Below, one piece after another: positions 4,727-15,036 of a DNA stretch of 35,666 nucleotides (positions within the stretch are counted from its first letter, which is position 1; each line of letters opens with the position of its first letter). Below the pieces are notes generated by a model. That model did not search any database. It saw only the letters and a list, made by a program, of their open reading frames with translations, and was not told where the DNA came from. Origin of the DNA: Cyanobacteria bacterium K_Offshore_surface_m2_239 (GTDB lineage Bacteria > Cyanobacteriota > Cyanobacteriia > PCC-6307 > Cyanobiaceae); the NCBI GenBank assembly GCA_016882305.1, contig VGQX01000013.1:1-35666 (forward strand), given 5' to 3'. The position numbers were made by a program, and so were the translations under genes.

Positions 4727-7228
4727 TTACACCTGCCGCCCCGCCCCCGGAATCGCCTCCCAGCCGGTGTGCGTCGCCCAAAGAGCCCAGATGGCCATGG
4801 GGCGCAGATAGTGGCAGGCGCGGAAGGTGCGGACAGCGGTGATCGCTTCGGGGGTGCGGAATTGCAGCCCGCCGCTGTACACCTGCTCGACCACGGCACC
4901 GGTGATCGCCAGCGCTGTCTTGGTGTCGCCCATCAGCCGGTAGTAAGCCGCCAGACCGAAGTTGATGCCCGTCCATACCTCCAGCGGGTGGGTGCCGTTT
5001 GGATCCAGCGGGGTGCCATCGCGCCGCAAACCGTTCGCCACCCCCAGGCGCCCTCCCTCAAAACCCTCGAAGCAGGCCTCACGGATGGCTTGCAGCGAAG
5101 AGCGGGCGCGCTCATCGGACACCACCGCTGGCAATCCCAGCAAGCGCGCATAGAAATCGCCACAGAGTTGATCCGCCATCACCACCGGTGTGCCGCTCTC
5201 CGCATCGATCTTGTAATACTCCCCGTTCCAAAGCAGCGGATCAAAATTCGCCCGCGATTGCTCCAGCCATTGGCCGAACTCTCTCTGTTCCTCCGTTGTG
5301 TCCAGCCCCAGCTCCAACTGCAGCCGTTGCCCCATCGCCAGCGCGGCCTCCAACGCGGCGATCCAGAGGGCACCGCAGTAGGCGCTCACCCCCTGCAACG
5401 GCCAATCATCAAAGGTCTGATCCGGGGCGCCGCCATTGTCGGGCAGACCGTCCTGATTGGCATCAAATCCCTTCAAATAGCGCAGCGCCTGCACCGCCGC
5501 CGGCCAGCATTGCGCCAGGAAGGTGATGTCCTCCCCTGTGGGCGCCAGGAGAAAGGTGCGCCACACCTGCAGCACAAAATCGCTGGCCAGATCTTTCCAG
5601 AGGTTGCAATCCTGGTAAGCGGTGTAGTTGGTGGCTTCGAAGGGTCGCTCGTTCGGAGCGCCCAGATCATGGGGGGTGGCGCCGGCCACCTTGCGGGGCG
5701 CCTCCACCCGTCCTTTCCCCTGGGTGAAATACCAACCGATCGGACGCGGCGCGGGATCCGCGGCGGGAATCGCCCGGGCGAAATCGCGCAACACCGCCTT
5801 GTCGAGTTCCGGCCAGAGCTGCAGCAGGGCGAACGAGCCGTACAGCCGCACGTCCAGGCTTTCATACCAGGCGTAGTCCAGGCACTCCAGCACGCCGAAG
5901 CGCCCCGCTGGATCCTCCGGGCTGGCGGCGGTCCACAACGTGCCGCCGCTCACCAGGTCGTAGAGCTCATTGCAGAGGGCCATCCGCAGCGCTTCCGGCA
6001 GATCCTTCCGCCCCACCACCGGCGCCTGCCAGGCCGCGATCGCCTCGCGCCAGGACCGCCAATCGCGCAGCGCCTCCGCCGCGATCGCCTCGGCCTGATC
6101 GCCCGTGGCCCCGAAGAAATCGGTGTAGCGGCGCAGAGCCTGACAGCCGCTGGCAAAGGCCGTCACCGGCAGGTCCCAGGCCACCACCACGGGAATCTCC
6201 ACGCTCTGGCCCGGTTCCAGGCGACAGCGCACGGCCAGGGCCGCGCTGGCGGGATCGTCGCCACCGCTGCGGCGATCGTTGGCGCTCTCCGGCACCGACC
6301 CCTCCCGGGCAAACGGCGCCCAGATCTCCTCGCCGCTCCCGGCGGGGTTCCAGCGGCCGCAACGGAAGATCTCCACCGCCACACCCCCGAAGCCGCCCTC
6401 TTCCGGCACGGCCACGCACCACTGTCCCTCCCCTTCCGCCGGCAGGCTGCCCGCCGGGCGGTCCGCCCCCTCCAGCAGCACCCCCTTGAGGCCGGGCTGG
6501 CTGGTCAGCCGATTCCGTTGGCCCTCCGTCCGGCCGATGGCGGGCACATAGGAATGCTCGGGACTGCCGTCATCGCGGAAATGCACCGTCGCCGAAGGAT
6601 CGGTGTTCGTGAACCAGCCACAGGTGTTGCGCCAGCTGGTGAGCAACGACAGCGTCAGCGGTGCGTTGGTGGGGTTGCGCAGGGTCCACACGAACACCGC
6701 CACCGGATAGCTGCTGCGCTGATAGTCGCCGGGCAGGATCGGGCTGAACGCCTCACCGCTCACCTCCGCCGCGAAGCCGGCGGTGATCGCCGTTCGGCTC
6801 AAGGGGAAGCGGGCCGCATAGGTGCCACTCCCGGCGGGCAACCACTCCCAGGCCGTCAACGGAGGGCCCGCTCCCGGGCGGCTCTCATCCGCCGTCGGCG
6901 CCACGGCCAAAGCCCTGGCCTGGCGTTCACCCCCGTCCCGGGCCTCAAACAGGGCGAACTGGCAATCGGGCACCACCCCGAACCAGTGTTCGCCGCCATC
7001 GAGATGCCACAGATTGAAGGCTCCATCCGGCGCCCGGCCGAGGCAGCCCGCCCCGAGTCCGCCGAGGGGCATGCCGTGGTTGGGGCCATCGTCCAGATTG
7101 CTGGCGTAGCGGACGGTGTAGGGATGCTCCCAACCACCCCCCAGCGGATGCCGCCAACTGCTGGGCCATCCAGCCGCCGCGTTGGCTGAGGCGGAGGGAG
7201 AACTCAGACGAGGCAGGCCGAAGGGCAT
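4727..7228 (-). CDS. GH116 beta-glucosidase (GBA2-like, non-lysosomal glucosylceramidase family)
   Basis: 833 aa protein with the two-domain plan of glycoside hydrolase family 116: an N-terminal beta-sandwich (about residues 30-390, starting after GMPLGGLGAGCLGR) and a C-terminal (alpha/alpha)6 barrel. The catalytic nucleophile region is GVLECLDYAWYESLDVR (Glu near residue 447, matching the human GBA2 motif LEGQEYRMYNTYDV), followed by YGSFALLQLWPELD. The acid/base Asp lies in APDQTFDDW (near 605), followed by GVSAYCGALW. The family cleaves beta-glucosides or beta-xylosides, including glucosylceramide in eukaryotes; the substrate here is unknown. There is no obvious signal peptide, so it is probably cytoplasmic. 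It diverges from the acyltransferase gene across about 97 bp. Confidence 0.9.
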   Translation of the reverse strand: MPFGLPRLSSPSASANAAAGWPSSWRHPLGGGWEHPYTVRYASNLDDGPNHGMPLGGLGAGCLGRAPDGAFNLWHLDGGEHWFGVVPDCQFALFEARDGGERQARALAVAPTADESRPGAGPPLTAWEWLPAGSGTYAARFPLSRTAITAGFAAEVSGEAFSPILPGDYQRSSYPVAVFVWTLRNPTNAPLTLSLLTSWRNTCGWFTNTDPSATVHFRDDGSPEHSYVPAIGRTEGQRNRLTSQPGLKGVLLEGADRPAGSLPAEGEGQWCVAVPEEGGFGGVAVEIFRCGRWNPAGSGEEIWAPFAREGSVPESANDRRSGGDDPASAALAVRCRLEPGQSVEIPVVVAWDLPVTAFASGCQALRRYTDFFGATGDQAEAIAAEALRDWRSWREAIAAWQAPVVGRKDLPEALRMALCNELYDLVSGGTLWTAASPEDPAGRFGVLECLDYAWYESLDVRLYGSFALLQLWPELDKAVLRDFARAIPAADPAPRPIGWYFTQGKGRVEAPRKVAGATPHDLGAPNERPFEATNYTAYQDCNLWKDLASDFVLQVWRTFLLAPTGEDITFLAQCWPAAVQALRYLKGFDANQDGLPDNGGAPDQTFDDWPLQGVSAYCGALWIAALEAALAMGQRLQLELGLDTTEEQREFGQWLEQSRANFDPLLWNGEYYKIDAESGTPVVMADQLCGDFYARLLGLPAVVSDERARSSLQAIREACFEGFEGGRLGVANGLRRDGTPLDPNGTHPLEVWTGINFGLAAYYRLMGDTKTALAITGAVVEQVYSGGLQFRTPEAITAVRTFRACHYLRPMAIWALWATHTGWEAIPGAGRQV

Positions 7229-7325
7229 GGCCAGGGCAGGATGGAAGGGTCAGCATGTCAGATCCAACAACGCCCCAACCGGCGGATCGATGCGTTGACG
7301 CCACGGCTGAACAGGACGCCTCCAG

Positions 7326-9035
7326 ATGCATGCCAGCGATGAAGCGAAAGCGCTCTCACACGCTTCGCCCGCCTACAGGCCCGAAATTGATGGCCTGAGG
7401 GCCGTGGCCGTTCTGGCGGTGCTGATTCATCACTTCGATCCCGCCTGGCTGCCGGGAGGCTTTTTGGGCGTGGATCTGTTCTTCGTGATCTCCGGTTATG
7501 TGGTCACGGCCTCCCTGGCGCGTCGCCAGGAACGCCACTGGCGAGAGATGCTGGCCGGCTTCTACACACGACGCTTTCGACGCCTCATCCCCGCCCTTTT
7601 GGTGATGGTGCTGGTCACGGCGATCGCCTTCACCGCTTTCGTCTCGCGATCCGATGCCACCTATGGCCCCATCATGGGCACGGGGCTGACGTCGCTCATT
7701 GGCGCCTCCAATCTTTATCTCCTGCGCACCGGTACCGATTACTTTAATTTCAGCACCCAATTCAACCCTTTTCTTCACACCTGGTCCCTTGGTGTGGAAG
7801 AGCAGTTTTATCTGCTCTGGCCTGTGCTCGTCCTGCTGACGGGTGTTGGTTTCCGGGGGGCCGGCACGCGCGCGTTGCGGCTCCTGCTTCTGTTGACCCT
7901 GATCCTCAGCCTGCTCTCCTTCGCCTTGTATTGGCGGCTGTCCACATCGTCAGCCACGGCGGCGGCGTTCTACCTGATGCCAGCGCGCTTCTGGGAGTTG
8001 TCCGCCGGAGCCCTCCTGGTCCTGGTTCAGGCCTTGCGCCCCCCCGCTACGCGACCCTCCGCTTCGCTCCTGCGACCCGGTCCGCTGTCCTCTTGGCTCT
8101 GCTGGGGCTCGATCACCCTGGTGCTGGTGGCCTTCGTGGTCAGCAACGAATCAGCCTTTGTCTTCAAGCCCGTCTTTGTGGTGGCCACGGCCGCTCTGAT
8201 GGCGGGCCTCAGCCGTCACAGTCGCCTCGGCCGCGCTTTGAGTCACCCCGCCCTGCTGGCGATCGGCATGGCGTCCTATTCCCTCTACCTCTGGCACTGG
8301 CCGTTCATCGTGCTGCTCCGCTGGACGCTCGGCCTTCGGATGCTCACGCTCCTTCCCCTGACGATCGCCATCGCCTTGGCGACCTGGGCGTCCTACAAAC
8401 TGGAAACCCGTTTTCGATTTGGCGCGATCGGCGCCTCCTGGTTTCAGCAGCCCCTGCTCCTCTACCCCCTGGCCTCCCTCGTCACCGGCGGGGTGGTCGT
8501 CGCGTTGTCCAGAGAAGGGGGCCCGCCGCTGTATCTGGGAGATCCCGCCACCGATCCGCAAACGTTCGCCGTCACCCCCGCGCGGTGCGCGGCACCTCCA
8601 TCAACACCCAGCGCTGCTTCCTGGAGCCCACGGCCCCAGTGGCGGCCAGCCAGTCCTCCGACGCCTGTCTGGTGCGCCGCAACCCGCAACAACCCGCCCT
8701 CTTCCTGGAGGGCGACAGCATCGCCCACTCCATGCTCCCCCTGCTGGAGCGGCTCCACGCCACCAAGGGCTTCAACATCAGCTTTTTCGGCCGGGGTGGG
8801 TGTCCCCTTCCCGGCTTTGAACCCTGGGCCGCCAACCGCCATCTGTTGCCCCGCTACCGGGCCTGCCCGGCCCATGCCCGAATGCGGGAGGCCTTTGTCC
8901 TGTCCAAAATCCGCCCGGGGGATCAGCTGCTCCTGGTCACGAACATGTATGTGTCGGGGCCCCGCTCCGAGGCGAACCTCCAGGCCGCCATCGCGCGCCT
9001 GGCCGAGGCCTTGGAACGCCGACGGGCGGGGCTGA
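7326..9035 (+). pseudogene. acyltransferase-3 (OafA-like) membrane domain, 5' part of a frameshifted gene
   Basis: The protein starts MHASDEAKAL and shows the acyltransferase-3 signature YRPEIDGLRAVAVLAVLIHHF (read in two parts: YRPEIDGLRAVAVLAV and LIHHF), then FLGVDLFFVISGYVVT, TRRFRRLIPALLV and HTWSLGVEEQFYLLWPVL, with about ten hydrophobic segments up to residue 400. Such proteins O-acetylate or otherwise acylate cell-surface glycans, usually together with a fused periplasmic SGNH domain. Here the frame is sensible only to about TFAVTP (near 8579); beyond it the translation to the stop at 9035 is Ser/Pro/Thr-rich nonsense, while the SGNH domain continues in another frame. Adding one base in the C run at 8575-8579 would restore a product of about 700 aa. 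The membrane part may still be made. Confidence 0.8.
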
Positions 9036-9427
9036 TCCTCTTTGCCCCTCTTCCTGTCTTCGCCGAGCGCGCCGCCATTCAGACCCCGTTGAGCCTCTGC
9101 TTCCCCGAGTGGTTCCGCCCCCCAAGCGCCATCCCCGCCGACTGCCAGCCGTTCCACATCAACCGTGACGCCGCGTTGCGCGACACCCGACCGCAGCGAG
9201 AGCTCCAGCGGCGCTTGCTCGCCCGACACCCCAACATTCACGTCTTCGATCCCTTCCCCCTCCTCTGCCCCCCCGGCCAGGCCACCTGCTCCACCCATCG
9301 CCAGGGGGTGATGCTCTTCAACGACGGCATCCACCTCACCACGACCGGCGCGCAAGACCTTGTTCCCGCGTTCGAGGCGTTCTTGCGGACGGTCCTGTCC
9401 CCCCCGAAGGAGGCGCGGACGCGCTAA
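8573..9427 (+). pseudogene. SGNH-type domain, 3' part of the frameshifted acyltransferase gene
   Basis: In the frame that ends at 9427 the sequence reads RAVRGTSINTQRCFLEP and onwards as a complete SGNH domain of the kind fused to OafA-like acyltransferases. The Gly-Asp-Ser motif is FLEGDSIAHSM, the block-III glycine region is GRGGCPL, and the C-terminal Asp-His pair is NDGIHLTTTGA. It lacks its own good start and ribosome binding site; a GTG at 8585 is the nearest candidate. The stop overlaps the convergent stop of pepN. The two parts are collinear with intact family members, so this is one broken gene, or one gene with a sequencing error, rather than two genes. Confidence 0.8.
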
Positions 9428-13412: not shown

Positions 13413-13479
13413 AGCAAGCAAACTGGAAACGCGTTGAAAACTCCATAAGGTGGGCAGGAGAACCTTGCGGGAGGGTGGC

Positions 13480-14685
13480 GTGAGCGGGGGGGCGGACCCA
13501 GCGCCGGATCAGCCGGCTGACCTGCCGAATGGCGCCGGTCCGAACGGGGGATCCTCCGGTGGACCCCAAAGCCTGAAGTTGCTGCTGCTGGCCAATCCCC
13601 ACCATCTGGCCAGCCCCAACCTGCGCTCGTTGGTGGCCTTCCTGCGGGGCGATGACTCGGGGTTCGACGTGACGCTGGAGGTGGTTGATCCCGCCAGGCA
13701 GCCGGAATTGCTGGAACTGCATCGCCTCGTGGCCACGCCGGCCCTGGTGAAGCTGGCTCCTCTCCCCAAGCAGGTCTTCGCTGGCAGCACCCTCCCCTCC
13801 CAGGTGCGCAGCTGGCTGCCGCGCTGGCAGCAAATGGAGGTGGTGAGCACCCTCGGCCTCAGCCTGCGGCCCGCCGAAATGGATGGCAGCCGCACCCAGC
13901 GGGAGGTGCAGCTGGAAGACCAACTGCTGGTGTTGCGTCAGGAGAACGAGACGTTGATCGAGCGCCTGGGGGTGCAGGAGCGGCTCCTGCGCATGGTGGC
14001 CCATGAACTGCGCACCCCCCTCACGGCCGCCAAGCTGGCTCTCCAGAGCCACGGCCTCGGGCAGATTGACGACCATCGCTTCCAGGACGTCCTCCACCGC
14101 CGCCTGGACGACATCGAGGCCCTCTCCCGCGATCTGCTGGAGGTGGGCACCACCCGTTGGGAGGCCCTGTTCAACCCCCAGCGGCTCGCTCTCGGGCAGG
14201 TGGTGGCCGATGCGATCCTGGAGCTGGAAAAGCTGTGGGTGGGCCGGCGGCTGGAACTCGTCACCGACATCCCCGCCGATCTGCCCGACCTCTATGCCGA
14301 TCAGCGGCGGATGCGCCAGGTGTTGCTCAACCTTCTGGAAAACGCCTTCAAGTTCACCCCGGATGGGGGCCGCGTCAGCCTCACCCTCCTGCACCGCACC
14401 AGTCAGTGGGTGCAGGTGAGTGTCTGCGACAGCGGTCCGGGCATCCCACGGGAGGAGCAGGAACGCATCTTTCAGGATCGCGTTCGCCTTCCTCAGACCT
14501 CCGGCACCACCTCGGGCTACGGCGTGGGACTCTCCGTGTGCCGCCGCATCGCCGAGGTGCACGGCGGTCGGATTTGGGTGGTGTCCGAGCCCGGCGAGGG
14601 CGCCTGCTTCCACTTCACCGTGCCGGTCTGGAACGGCCAGAGCGGCCCCGCGGAGATGCAGGCGGCCAAACCCCCATGGCCTTGA
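13480..14685 (+). CDS. sasA: circadian clock-associated histidine kinase SasA
   Basis: About 401 aa. An N-terminal KaiB-like thioredoxin-fold domain (about residues 28-115, [18 protein letters not shown] to VRSWLPRW) is joined by a coiled-coil stretch to a HisKA domain ([14 protein letters not shown], phospho-His near residue 175) and an HATPase domain with the N box [15 protein letters not shown]1 box CDSGPGIP and G2 box GYGVGLSV. This architecture is specific to SasA, which reads KaiC and phosphorylates RpaA to drive circadian gene expression. The GTG at 13480 is preferred over one at 13450 because GGGAGGG lies 5-10 bases upstream. Confidence 0.93.
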
Positions 14686-14963: not shown

Positions 14964-15036
14964 GCCCCCATCGTCTAGAGGCCTAGGACACCTCCCTTTC
15001 ACGGAGGCGACAGGGGTTCGAATCCCCTTGGGGGTA
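14964..15036 (+). tRNA. tRNA-Glu (anticodon UUC)
   Basis: A full cloverleaf can be drawn over 73 bases. The acceptor stem GCCCCCA pairs with TGGGGGT (first pair G-T) and is followed by discriminator A. The anticodon arm is CCTCC-CTTTCAC-GGAGG, giving anticodon TTC, and the T arm is AGGGG-TTCGAAT-CCCCT. CCA is not encoded. In cyanobacteria this tRNA also supplies glutamyl-tRNA for tetrapyrrole (heme, chlorophyll, bilin) synthesis. Confidence 0.97.

What the first reader, a model, noticed from the sequence alone, without database searches (positions are those of the whole stretch)
8565..8595. Frameshift splits an OafA-like acyltransferase from its SGNH domain
The plus-strand frame from 7326 reads as a good acyltransferase-3 domain until about 8579, then turns to nonsense; the SGNH domain (GDSIAH, DGIHLT) continues in the frame ending at 9427. 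Adding one base in the C run at 8575-8579 joins them as ...VTPRAVRGTS.... Either the gene is a recent pseudogene, or phase-variable slippage occurs in the C run, or the base is a sequencing error. Surface-glycan acylation is a common target of on/off switching, so a real slip would be of biological interest.
Basis: partly seen in the sequence, partly recalled or inferred. Interest (0 to 1): 0.6.

Follow-up and report, generated by a model that had tools for sequence, protein, structure and literature searches.

The report
Broken surface-sugar acyltransferase gene, picocyanobacterium
A picocyanobacterium's gene for an enzyme that probably decorates surface sugars is cut in two by a change of reading frame; it looks like ordinary recent gene loss (or possibly an assembly error) rather than an on/off switch, although the three genes of this type found in this genome are all broken.

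Summary
An AT3 acyltransferase frame (from 7326) and an SGNH frame (to 9427) are parts of one gene whose frame changes, by codon composition, within 8556-8594. Of 19 orthologous loci of the genus that hold both domains, all 19 have them in one frame; 18 are uninterrupted and one (G038) has an in-frame TGA. In 20 of 20 loci of this group a GH116 glycosidase gene lies divergently beside it.

The C run is a weak cause: five long, one of 14 such runs in the gene, while three C7 runs are undisturbed. In 13 of 19 relatives the linker is exactly 2 nt shorter than here, so a gain of two fits at least as well as a loss of one.

New here: the genome's two other AT3-SGNH genes (contigs C18, C168) each carry one frame change too, at other places and not at their longest homopolymers. 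The same locus is a nonsense allele in G038, a multi-frame relic in G009, and empty of AT3 in 13 of 29 loci read. Best reading: recent loss of an accessory surface-glycan acyltransferase that is lost repeatedly. Without reads, assembly error stays possible.

The parts
7326..8577 (+). AT3 (acyltransferase-3) domain and the stretch after it, first frame
   Evidence: PF01757 match, residues 19-357; coding model; 44-61% identity to the 20 loci L005-L024 over stretches of 217-408 residues
8556..8594 (+). 95% interval of the frame change by composition (best 8578); contains C5 at 8575-8579
   Evidence: linker 2 nt longer than in 13 of 19 relatives
8578..9427 (+). SGNH domain, second frame (GDS at 8711-8719, DGIH at 9323-9334)
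   Evidence: PF19040 E 6.5e-29; 39-42% identity to the same part of 19 fused relatives; motif places
8580..9035 (+). out-of-frame tail of the first frame, about 150 codons without a Pfam match, to its stop
4727..7228 (-). GH116 glycoside hydrolase gene, divergent conserved neighbour
   Evidence: PF04685 and PF12215; beside AT3-SGNH in 20 of 20 orthologous loci; present in 40 of 42 genus genomes, own included

Best explanation
The locus carries a recently inactivated (pseudogenised) AT3-SGNH fused acyltransferase. Inferred function of the intact enzyme: the AT3 membrane domain passes an acyl group across the inner membrane to a periplasmic SGNH domain, which puts it on a surface glycan. The frame change lies in the link after the membrane part, so translation would give the membrane domain with a wrong tail and no SGNH domain. 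Shown by sequence: the split. Inferred: loss of activity. The gene is an accessory gene that is lost repeatedly in this genus, perhaps because surface-glycan acylation is under fluctuating selection (phages, grazers); the selective cause is inference.
For: One lesion only: the best full-length alignments show 1 frame change and 0 stops in each of the three AT3-SGNH genes of the genome (SGNH domain PF19040 confirmed in the second frames of C18 and C168). Both halves of the window gene keep coding composition. Eighteen of 19 orthologues with both domains are uninterrupted. Same locus broken by other lesions in other genomes: in-frame TGA in G038, multi-frame relic in G009 beside the same GH116 gene. 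AT3 absent beside GH116 in 13 of 29 loci read. No second copy of either half in the assembly. Few frame splits in other families of G000: by coordinates 0 in 18 GT1 rows and 0 in 49 ABC rows, one gene in 28 GT2 rows, one apparent in 27 epimerase rows. Literature: in OafA, changing the SGNH Ser or His almost abolishes and the Asp reduces activity (PMC7448272, passages); the AT3 gene of H. influenzae Rd had a frameshift in the original genome sequence while strain Eagan's is intact (PMC9558356, passages).
Against: No reads and no close strain: the best-scoring DNA match in 41 other genomes of the genus is 70% over 452 bases, so a base error in a 343-contig draft cannot be excluded. The homology screen for background lesions flagged only 1 of the 3 known AT3 lesions, so its low background is soft. 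Control families were checked over single domains, AT3-SGNH genes over full length; in the domain search only C18 shows stops. Three epimerase rows with short open frames (C42, C151, C238) were not followed and may be further lesions or contig ends. Excess change at otherwise invariant columns (29 of 144) fits decay but also the outgroup position of this sequence.
Confidence: 0.6

Rival explanations
1. Sequencing or assembly error: the gene is intact in the organism and the draft assembly (343 contigs) holds a wrong base count, possibly a consensus of co-existing strains.
For: Draft with 343 contigs, 3.3% contamination; lesion of one or two bases, rest of the gene intact; C-rich sequence. Surface-structure genes are microdiverse in lake bacteria, and metagenome assembly masks microdiversity by a consensus (PMC9426551, abstract and passages).
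Against: The change is the strongest frame switch called in 436 kb, and no cross-frame split was seen in the 18 GT1 and 49 ABC rows. Three lesions fall in the three AT3-SGNH genes found, not at long runs.
Confidence: 0.3
2. Phase variation by slippage in the C run switches the enzyme on and off.
For: The 95% interval contains C5; AT3 genes are phase variable elsewhere (PMC6479036, PMC9558356, passages).
Against: C5 is one of 14 runs of five or more in the gene, 39% of 74-nt intervals hold such a run, and three C7 runs are undisturbed. The sister lesions in C18 and C168 are not at their longest runs, T9 and A7. The frame is the same for both domains in 19 of 19 relatives. No repeat tract of the kind used by H. 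influenzae oafA in the three genes.
Confidence: 0.05
3. Programmed ribosomal or transcriptional frameshifting yields some fused protein.
For: The shift is to the -1 frame. A heptamer of the X XXY YYZ pattern (GGGCCCG) lies in frame at 8519-8525, and a CCC codon inside the C run could re-pair one base back.
Against: No X XXY YYZ heptamer inside 8556-8594; five such pattern matches occur along the first frame, so the one at 8519 is not special. RNA structure after the C run (8580-8660) is no stronger than shuffles (z 0.46); that after 8525 was not folded. Relatives have both domains in one frame.
Confidence: 0.04
4. Two functional genes: a standalone AT3 and a separate SGNH protein.
For: Standalone AT3 proteins are the commonest kind (PMC9833829, passages); a GTG lies at 8585.
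Against: From that GTG the SGNH frame has no evident membrane anchor or signal sequence (by inspection, no predictor run), the AT3 frame runs on for about 150 codons without a Pfam match, and 0 of 19 relatives are encoded so.
Confidence: 0.01

Closest known systems
Salmonella OafA/OafB, AT3-SGNH O-antigen acetyltransferases
   Same: AT3 domain (PF01757), linker, C-terminal SGNH domain (PF19040); GDS and DxxH motifs; a PGGFLGVD stretch that fits the XGG-F/Y-XGV-D motif given for fused proteins (PMC7448272, passage)
   Different: Here the two domains lie in different frames; substrate unknown; host is a picocyanobacterium. No alignment to OafA or OafB themselves was made
Phase-variable oafA of non-typeable Haemophilus influenzae
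   Same: AT3-family O-acetyltransferase gene in an out-of-frame state
   Different: There a GCAA tract switches it (9 and 10 units off, 11 on; PMC6479036); here no such tract, only C5
Frameshifted AT3 gene in the H. influenzae Rd genome sequence, intact in strain Eagan
   Same: Broken allele of an AT3 gene with intact alleles in relatives (PMC9558356, passage)
   Different: Here three of three AT3-SGNH genes found in one genome are broken, each by its own lesion

Membership tests
AT3-SGNH fused acyltransferase (OafA/OafB type) | AT3 domain PF01757 | tested here: met
   E 2.1e-27, 96.5 bits, cut-off 31
AT3-SGNH fused acyltransferase (OafA/OafB type) | SGNH domain of the AT3-fused type, PF19040 | tested here: met
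   E 6.5e-29, 101.8 bits, cut-off 27
AT3-SGNH fused acyltransferase (OafA/OafB type) | both domains in one reading frame | tested here: not met
   frames differ here; 19 of 19 orthologous loci with both domains have them in one frame, one of these with an in-frame TGA
AT3-SGNH fused acyltransferase (OafA/OafB type) | catalytic Ser (GDS) and Asp/His (DxxH) motifs of the SGNH domain | tested here: met
   GDS and DGIH in the second frame; roles from PMC7448272 passages
AT3-SGNH fused acyltransferase (OafA/OafB type) | essential AT3 residues corresponding to OafA R14 and H25 | not tested
   no alignment to OafA was made
AT3-SGNH fused acyltransferase (OafA/OafB type) | acylates a surface glycan | not testable with these tools
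   needs glycan analysis
Phase-variable gene switched by repeat slippage | long simple repeat or homopolymer at the frame change | tested here: not met
   C5 only; the longest runs (three C7) lie elsewhere in the gene
Phase-variable gene switched by repeat slippage | both states seen within a population | not testable with these tools
   no reads, no close strain
Programmed -1 frameshift site | slippery heptamer at the frame change | tested here: inconclusive
   none in 8556-8594; one pattern match at 8519-8525, within the wider interval allowed by homology; five along the frame
Programmed -1 frameshift site | stimulatory structure, conservation in relatives | tested here: not met
   fold of 8580-8660 z 0.46; 19 of 19 relatives in one frame
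Pseudogene | disabling lesion where relatives have an open frame | tested here: met
Pseudogene | relaxed constraint after the lesion | tested here: inconclusive
   29 of 144 leave-one-out invariant columns changed, but the sequence is also the outgroup

The most novel reading that the evidence does not exclude
This lineage has just lost every AT3-SGNH surface acyltransferase found in it: three single-lesion frame breaks at unrelated places in three genes (contigs C13, C18, C168), while other gene families checked are nearly clean. That would mark a recent selective sweep for a non-acylated surface, for instance under phage attack, and a locus (GH116 / AT3-SGNH) where the genus repeatedly gains and loses this decoration.
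Probability: 0.3. Interest if true: 0.45.

Novelty: new member of a known kind. Interest (0 to 1): 0.25.

Why it matters
Taken alone it is an ordinary broken accessory gene. If reads confirm the three lesions, it is a natural case of parallel loss of surface-glycan acylation in a picocyanobacterium, which can be tied to phage host range. The conserved GH116 / AT3-SGNH pair also gives a fixed chromosomal place at which gain, decay and loss can be scored across strains.

Tried and rejected
Slippage in the C run: rejected as the leading cause (run lengths, sister lesions). Programmed frameshift: thought unlikely, not excluded. Natural two-gene encoding: rejected. A second copy of either half in the assembly: none among the matches at E 0.001.

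Named relatives through the SGNH part: 49 stretches matched a pattern, none confirmed. Through the M1 peptidase 80 loci came, a capped list. I looked for AT3 in 19 of the 80 in a script that failed, then in 12 of the 80 (L034-L045): none of the 12 shows AT3, SGNH or GH116 in the DNA held. In G023 the M1 and AT3 genes lie far apart, so that side of the locus is not syntenic there.

Frame-switch model: in the control genome G023 it called 74 events in 400 kb against 11 in G000 at the same cost, so its counts are no clean error rate; I use it only for the rank and place of the window event. It did not mark the low-GC C18 gene. First homology screen: 17 places in G000 and 12 in G023, many on antisense frames; I did not check each. 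Second screen: four places in G000, three of them in L150 on the strand opposite to the coding one and one in the C18 AT3 gene; it missed the window and C168 lesions. In the other direction it gave three places in G023, one of them the AT3 gene of L212; the other two (L201, L176) were not followed.

Relaxed-constraint test: not decisive. It used 17 relatives; L021 and L022 (intact) and L023 (cut) were not kept by my script's filter, and rows were trimmed to their first methionine, so part of the N-terminus is uncounted. Solved structures by sequence for the SGNH half: none at E 0.01. Papers: Cyanobium with acyltransferase and SGNH, 0 papers; three searches on phage resistance gave context only. 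Of the papers cited I saw the start of the abstract in listings and passages, not whole texts.

Full report
What the window is. The window is contig C13 of a draft genome G000 of 3.52 Mb in 343 contigs, 95.6% complete and 3.3% contaminated by the tool's estimate. Among named loci its M1 aminopeptidase is nearest to Synechococcus sp. BO 8801 (73%) and Cyanobium usitatum (70%), so I take it as a Cyanobium/Synechococcus-type picocyanobacterium.

Frame 7326-9035 matches the AT3 domain in its first part, and the SGNH domain of the kind fused to AT3 is found in the frame ending at 9427. Both frames are open past each other, so the break is placed by homology and composition, not by stops. A composition model trained on long frames in 435,666 bases of the same genome puts the change at 8578 with a 95% set of 8556-8594. 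At a shift cost of 12 it ranks first among 11 calls in that sequence, 34 nats net against 11.5 for the next. A caution: the same method called 74 changes in 400 kb of a one-contig relative, G023, so I use rank and place only.

Relatives are one gene. Of 99 genomes searched (own included), 47 match the AT3 part and 43 the SGNH part. I examined the 20 loci L005-L024, the best AT3 matches. In 19 both domains are present and in the same frame; 18 of these are uninterrupted, and the locus of genome G038 has one in-frame TGA in the AT3 part. L023 is cut by its contig end. All 20 have a GH116 gene, the orthologue of window 4727-7228, divergently beside the AT3 gene. The locus is therefore orthologous, and a natural two-gene encoding is not seen.

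How it is broken. From the last AT3 residue aligned to the SGNH start this gene is 2 nt longer than its relative in 13 of 19 loci, 5 nt longer in five whose AT3 alignment ends early, and 14 nt longer in one. The net offset fits one base lost or two gained; the linker is too variable to choose. The C run at 8575-8579 is inside the composition interval but is one of 14 runs of five or more in the gene, 39% of 74-nt intervals of the gene hold such a run, and three C7 runs are in frame.

Sister genes. The genome has three AT3 genes by Pfam. All three carry an SGNH domain (PF19040), and the best full-length alignment of each shows one frame change and no stop (frames): C13 (window), C18 near 7790 on the minus strand, C168 near 5334. 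Some weaker reference alignments add a second frame change (C18 with L027) or a stop (C168 with L018). The places differ, and the longest homopolymers (C7, T9, A7) are not at the breaks. The C18 and C168 copies have GC 0.51 and 0.49 against 0.66 for the window copy, so they look recently acquired.

Background of lesions. Searches of G000 with whole families gave, judged by coordinates, 28 rows for GT2 with one gene split over two frames (C17, 19414-19828), 18 rows for GT1 with none, 49 rows for ABC ATPases with none across frames, and 27 rows for epimerases with one apparent split (C195) and three short open frames not followed (C42, C151, C238). These check single domains, while the AT3-SGNH genes were read at full length; by the domain search alone only C18 shows stops. 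The excess in AT3-SGNH genes is therefore suggestive, not a tested statistic. The homology screen against 800 kb of G023 (91 coding frames with a homologue of 310, 118,820 bases) added no other credible lesion but flagged only one of the three known ones.

The locus across the genus. GH116 is present in 40 of 42 genomes, own included. I read the upstream side of 29 of these loci, the window's not counted: 14 carry an AT3 gene, 13 none, one (G009) a relic spread over several frames, and one (G022) is cut after 105 bases. Adding the loci, the gene is uninterrupted in 18 genomes, cut by contig ends in 2 (G036, G005), and broken in 3 (G000 frame change, G038 nonsense, G009 relic). Other AT3 genes of the genus are broken too, for example G022:C206 with two frame changes and one copy of a tandem array in G023. 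Repeated gain and decay of this family is the plain pattern.

Mechanism. In OafB the AT3 domain has ten membrane helices and an eleventh leads to the periplasmic SGNH domain (PMC9833829, passages); in OafA the SGNH Ser and His are needed and the Asp contributes (PMC7448272, passages). The break here lies after the AT3 domain and before the GDS block, so the product would be a membrane domain without its transfer domain. Loss of function is inferred. Recent age is inferred from one lesion per gene, retained coding composition and retained GDS and DGIH motifs. The constraint test (29 of 144 leave-one-out invariant columns changed, next highest 11 of 127; 18 rows) would fit decay, but the sequence is also the most distant by its GH116 neighbour (77-80% against 80-97% among 14 others), so it decides nothing.

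Verdict. A real frame break in the assembly of a well-known kind of gene; most likely a recent pseudogene (0.6), possibly an assembly error (0.3), hardly a slippage switch (0.05). The unusual part is that all three AT3-SGNH genes found in the genome are broken, which deserves a look at the reads.

Noticed in passing
L160 6447-8341 (G000:C18) and L002 1491-3454 (G000:C168): Two further AT3-SGNH genes of the same genome, low GC, each with one frame change in the best alignment.
   Followed up: yes
L228 (G000:C17, 19414-19828): A family 2 glycosyltransferase gene split over two frames, GC 0.51.
   Followed up: partly
G000:C195 4093-4814: Epimerase domain apparently split over two frames (coordinates).
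   Followed up: no
window 4727-7228 and L235-L263: GH116 beta-glucosidase-like gene in 40 of 42 genus genomes, with AT3-SGNH divergently beside it in 14 of 29 loci read; function of the pair unknown.
   Followed up: partly
L218/L247 (G009:C46): Multi-frame relic of the same AT3-SGNH gene beside GH116.
   Followed up: yes
L212 (G023:C1 about 2094900-2100200): Tandem array of AT3-SGNH genes with one copy broken over two frames in a one-contig genome.
   Followed up: partly
window 7229-7325: Two GATC sites (7261, 7285) in the 97-nt divergent spacer; rhamnose acetylation by an OafB homologue in S. Typhi is under epigenetic phase variation (PMC9558356 passage), but nothing here tests that.
   Followed up: no
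window 13450-14685: Histidine kinase with a KaiB domain; SasA-like clock output kinase, name recalled.
   Followed up: no
window 14964-15036: tRNA-Glu (ttc); 99-100% identical stretch in G023, G020 and G002.
   Followed up: no
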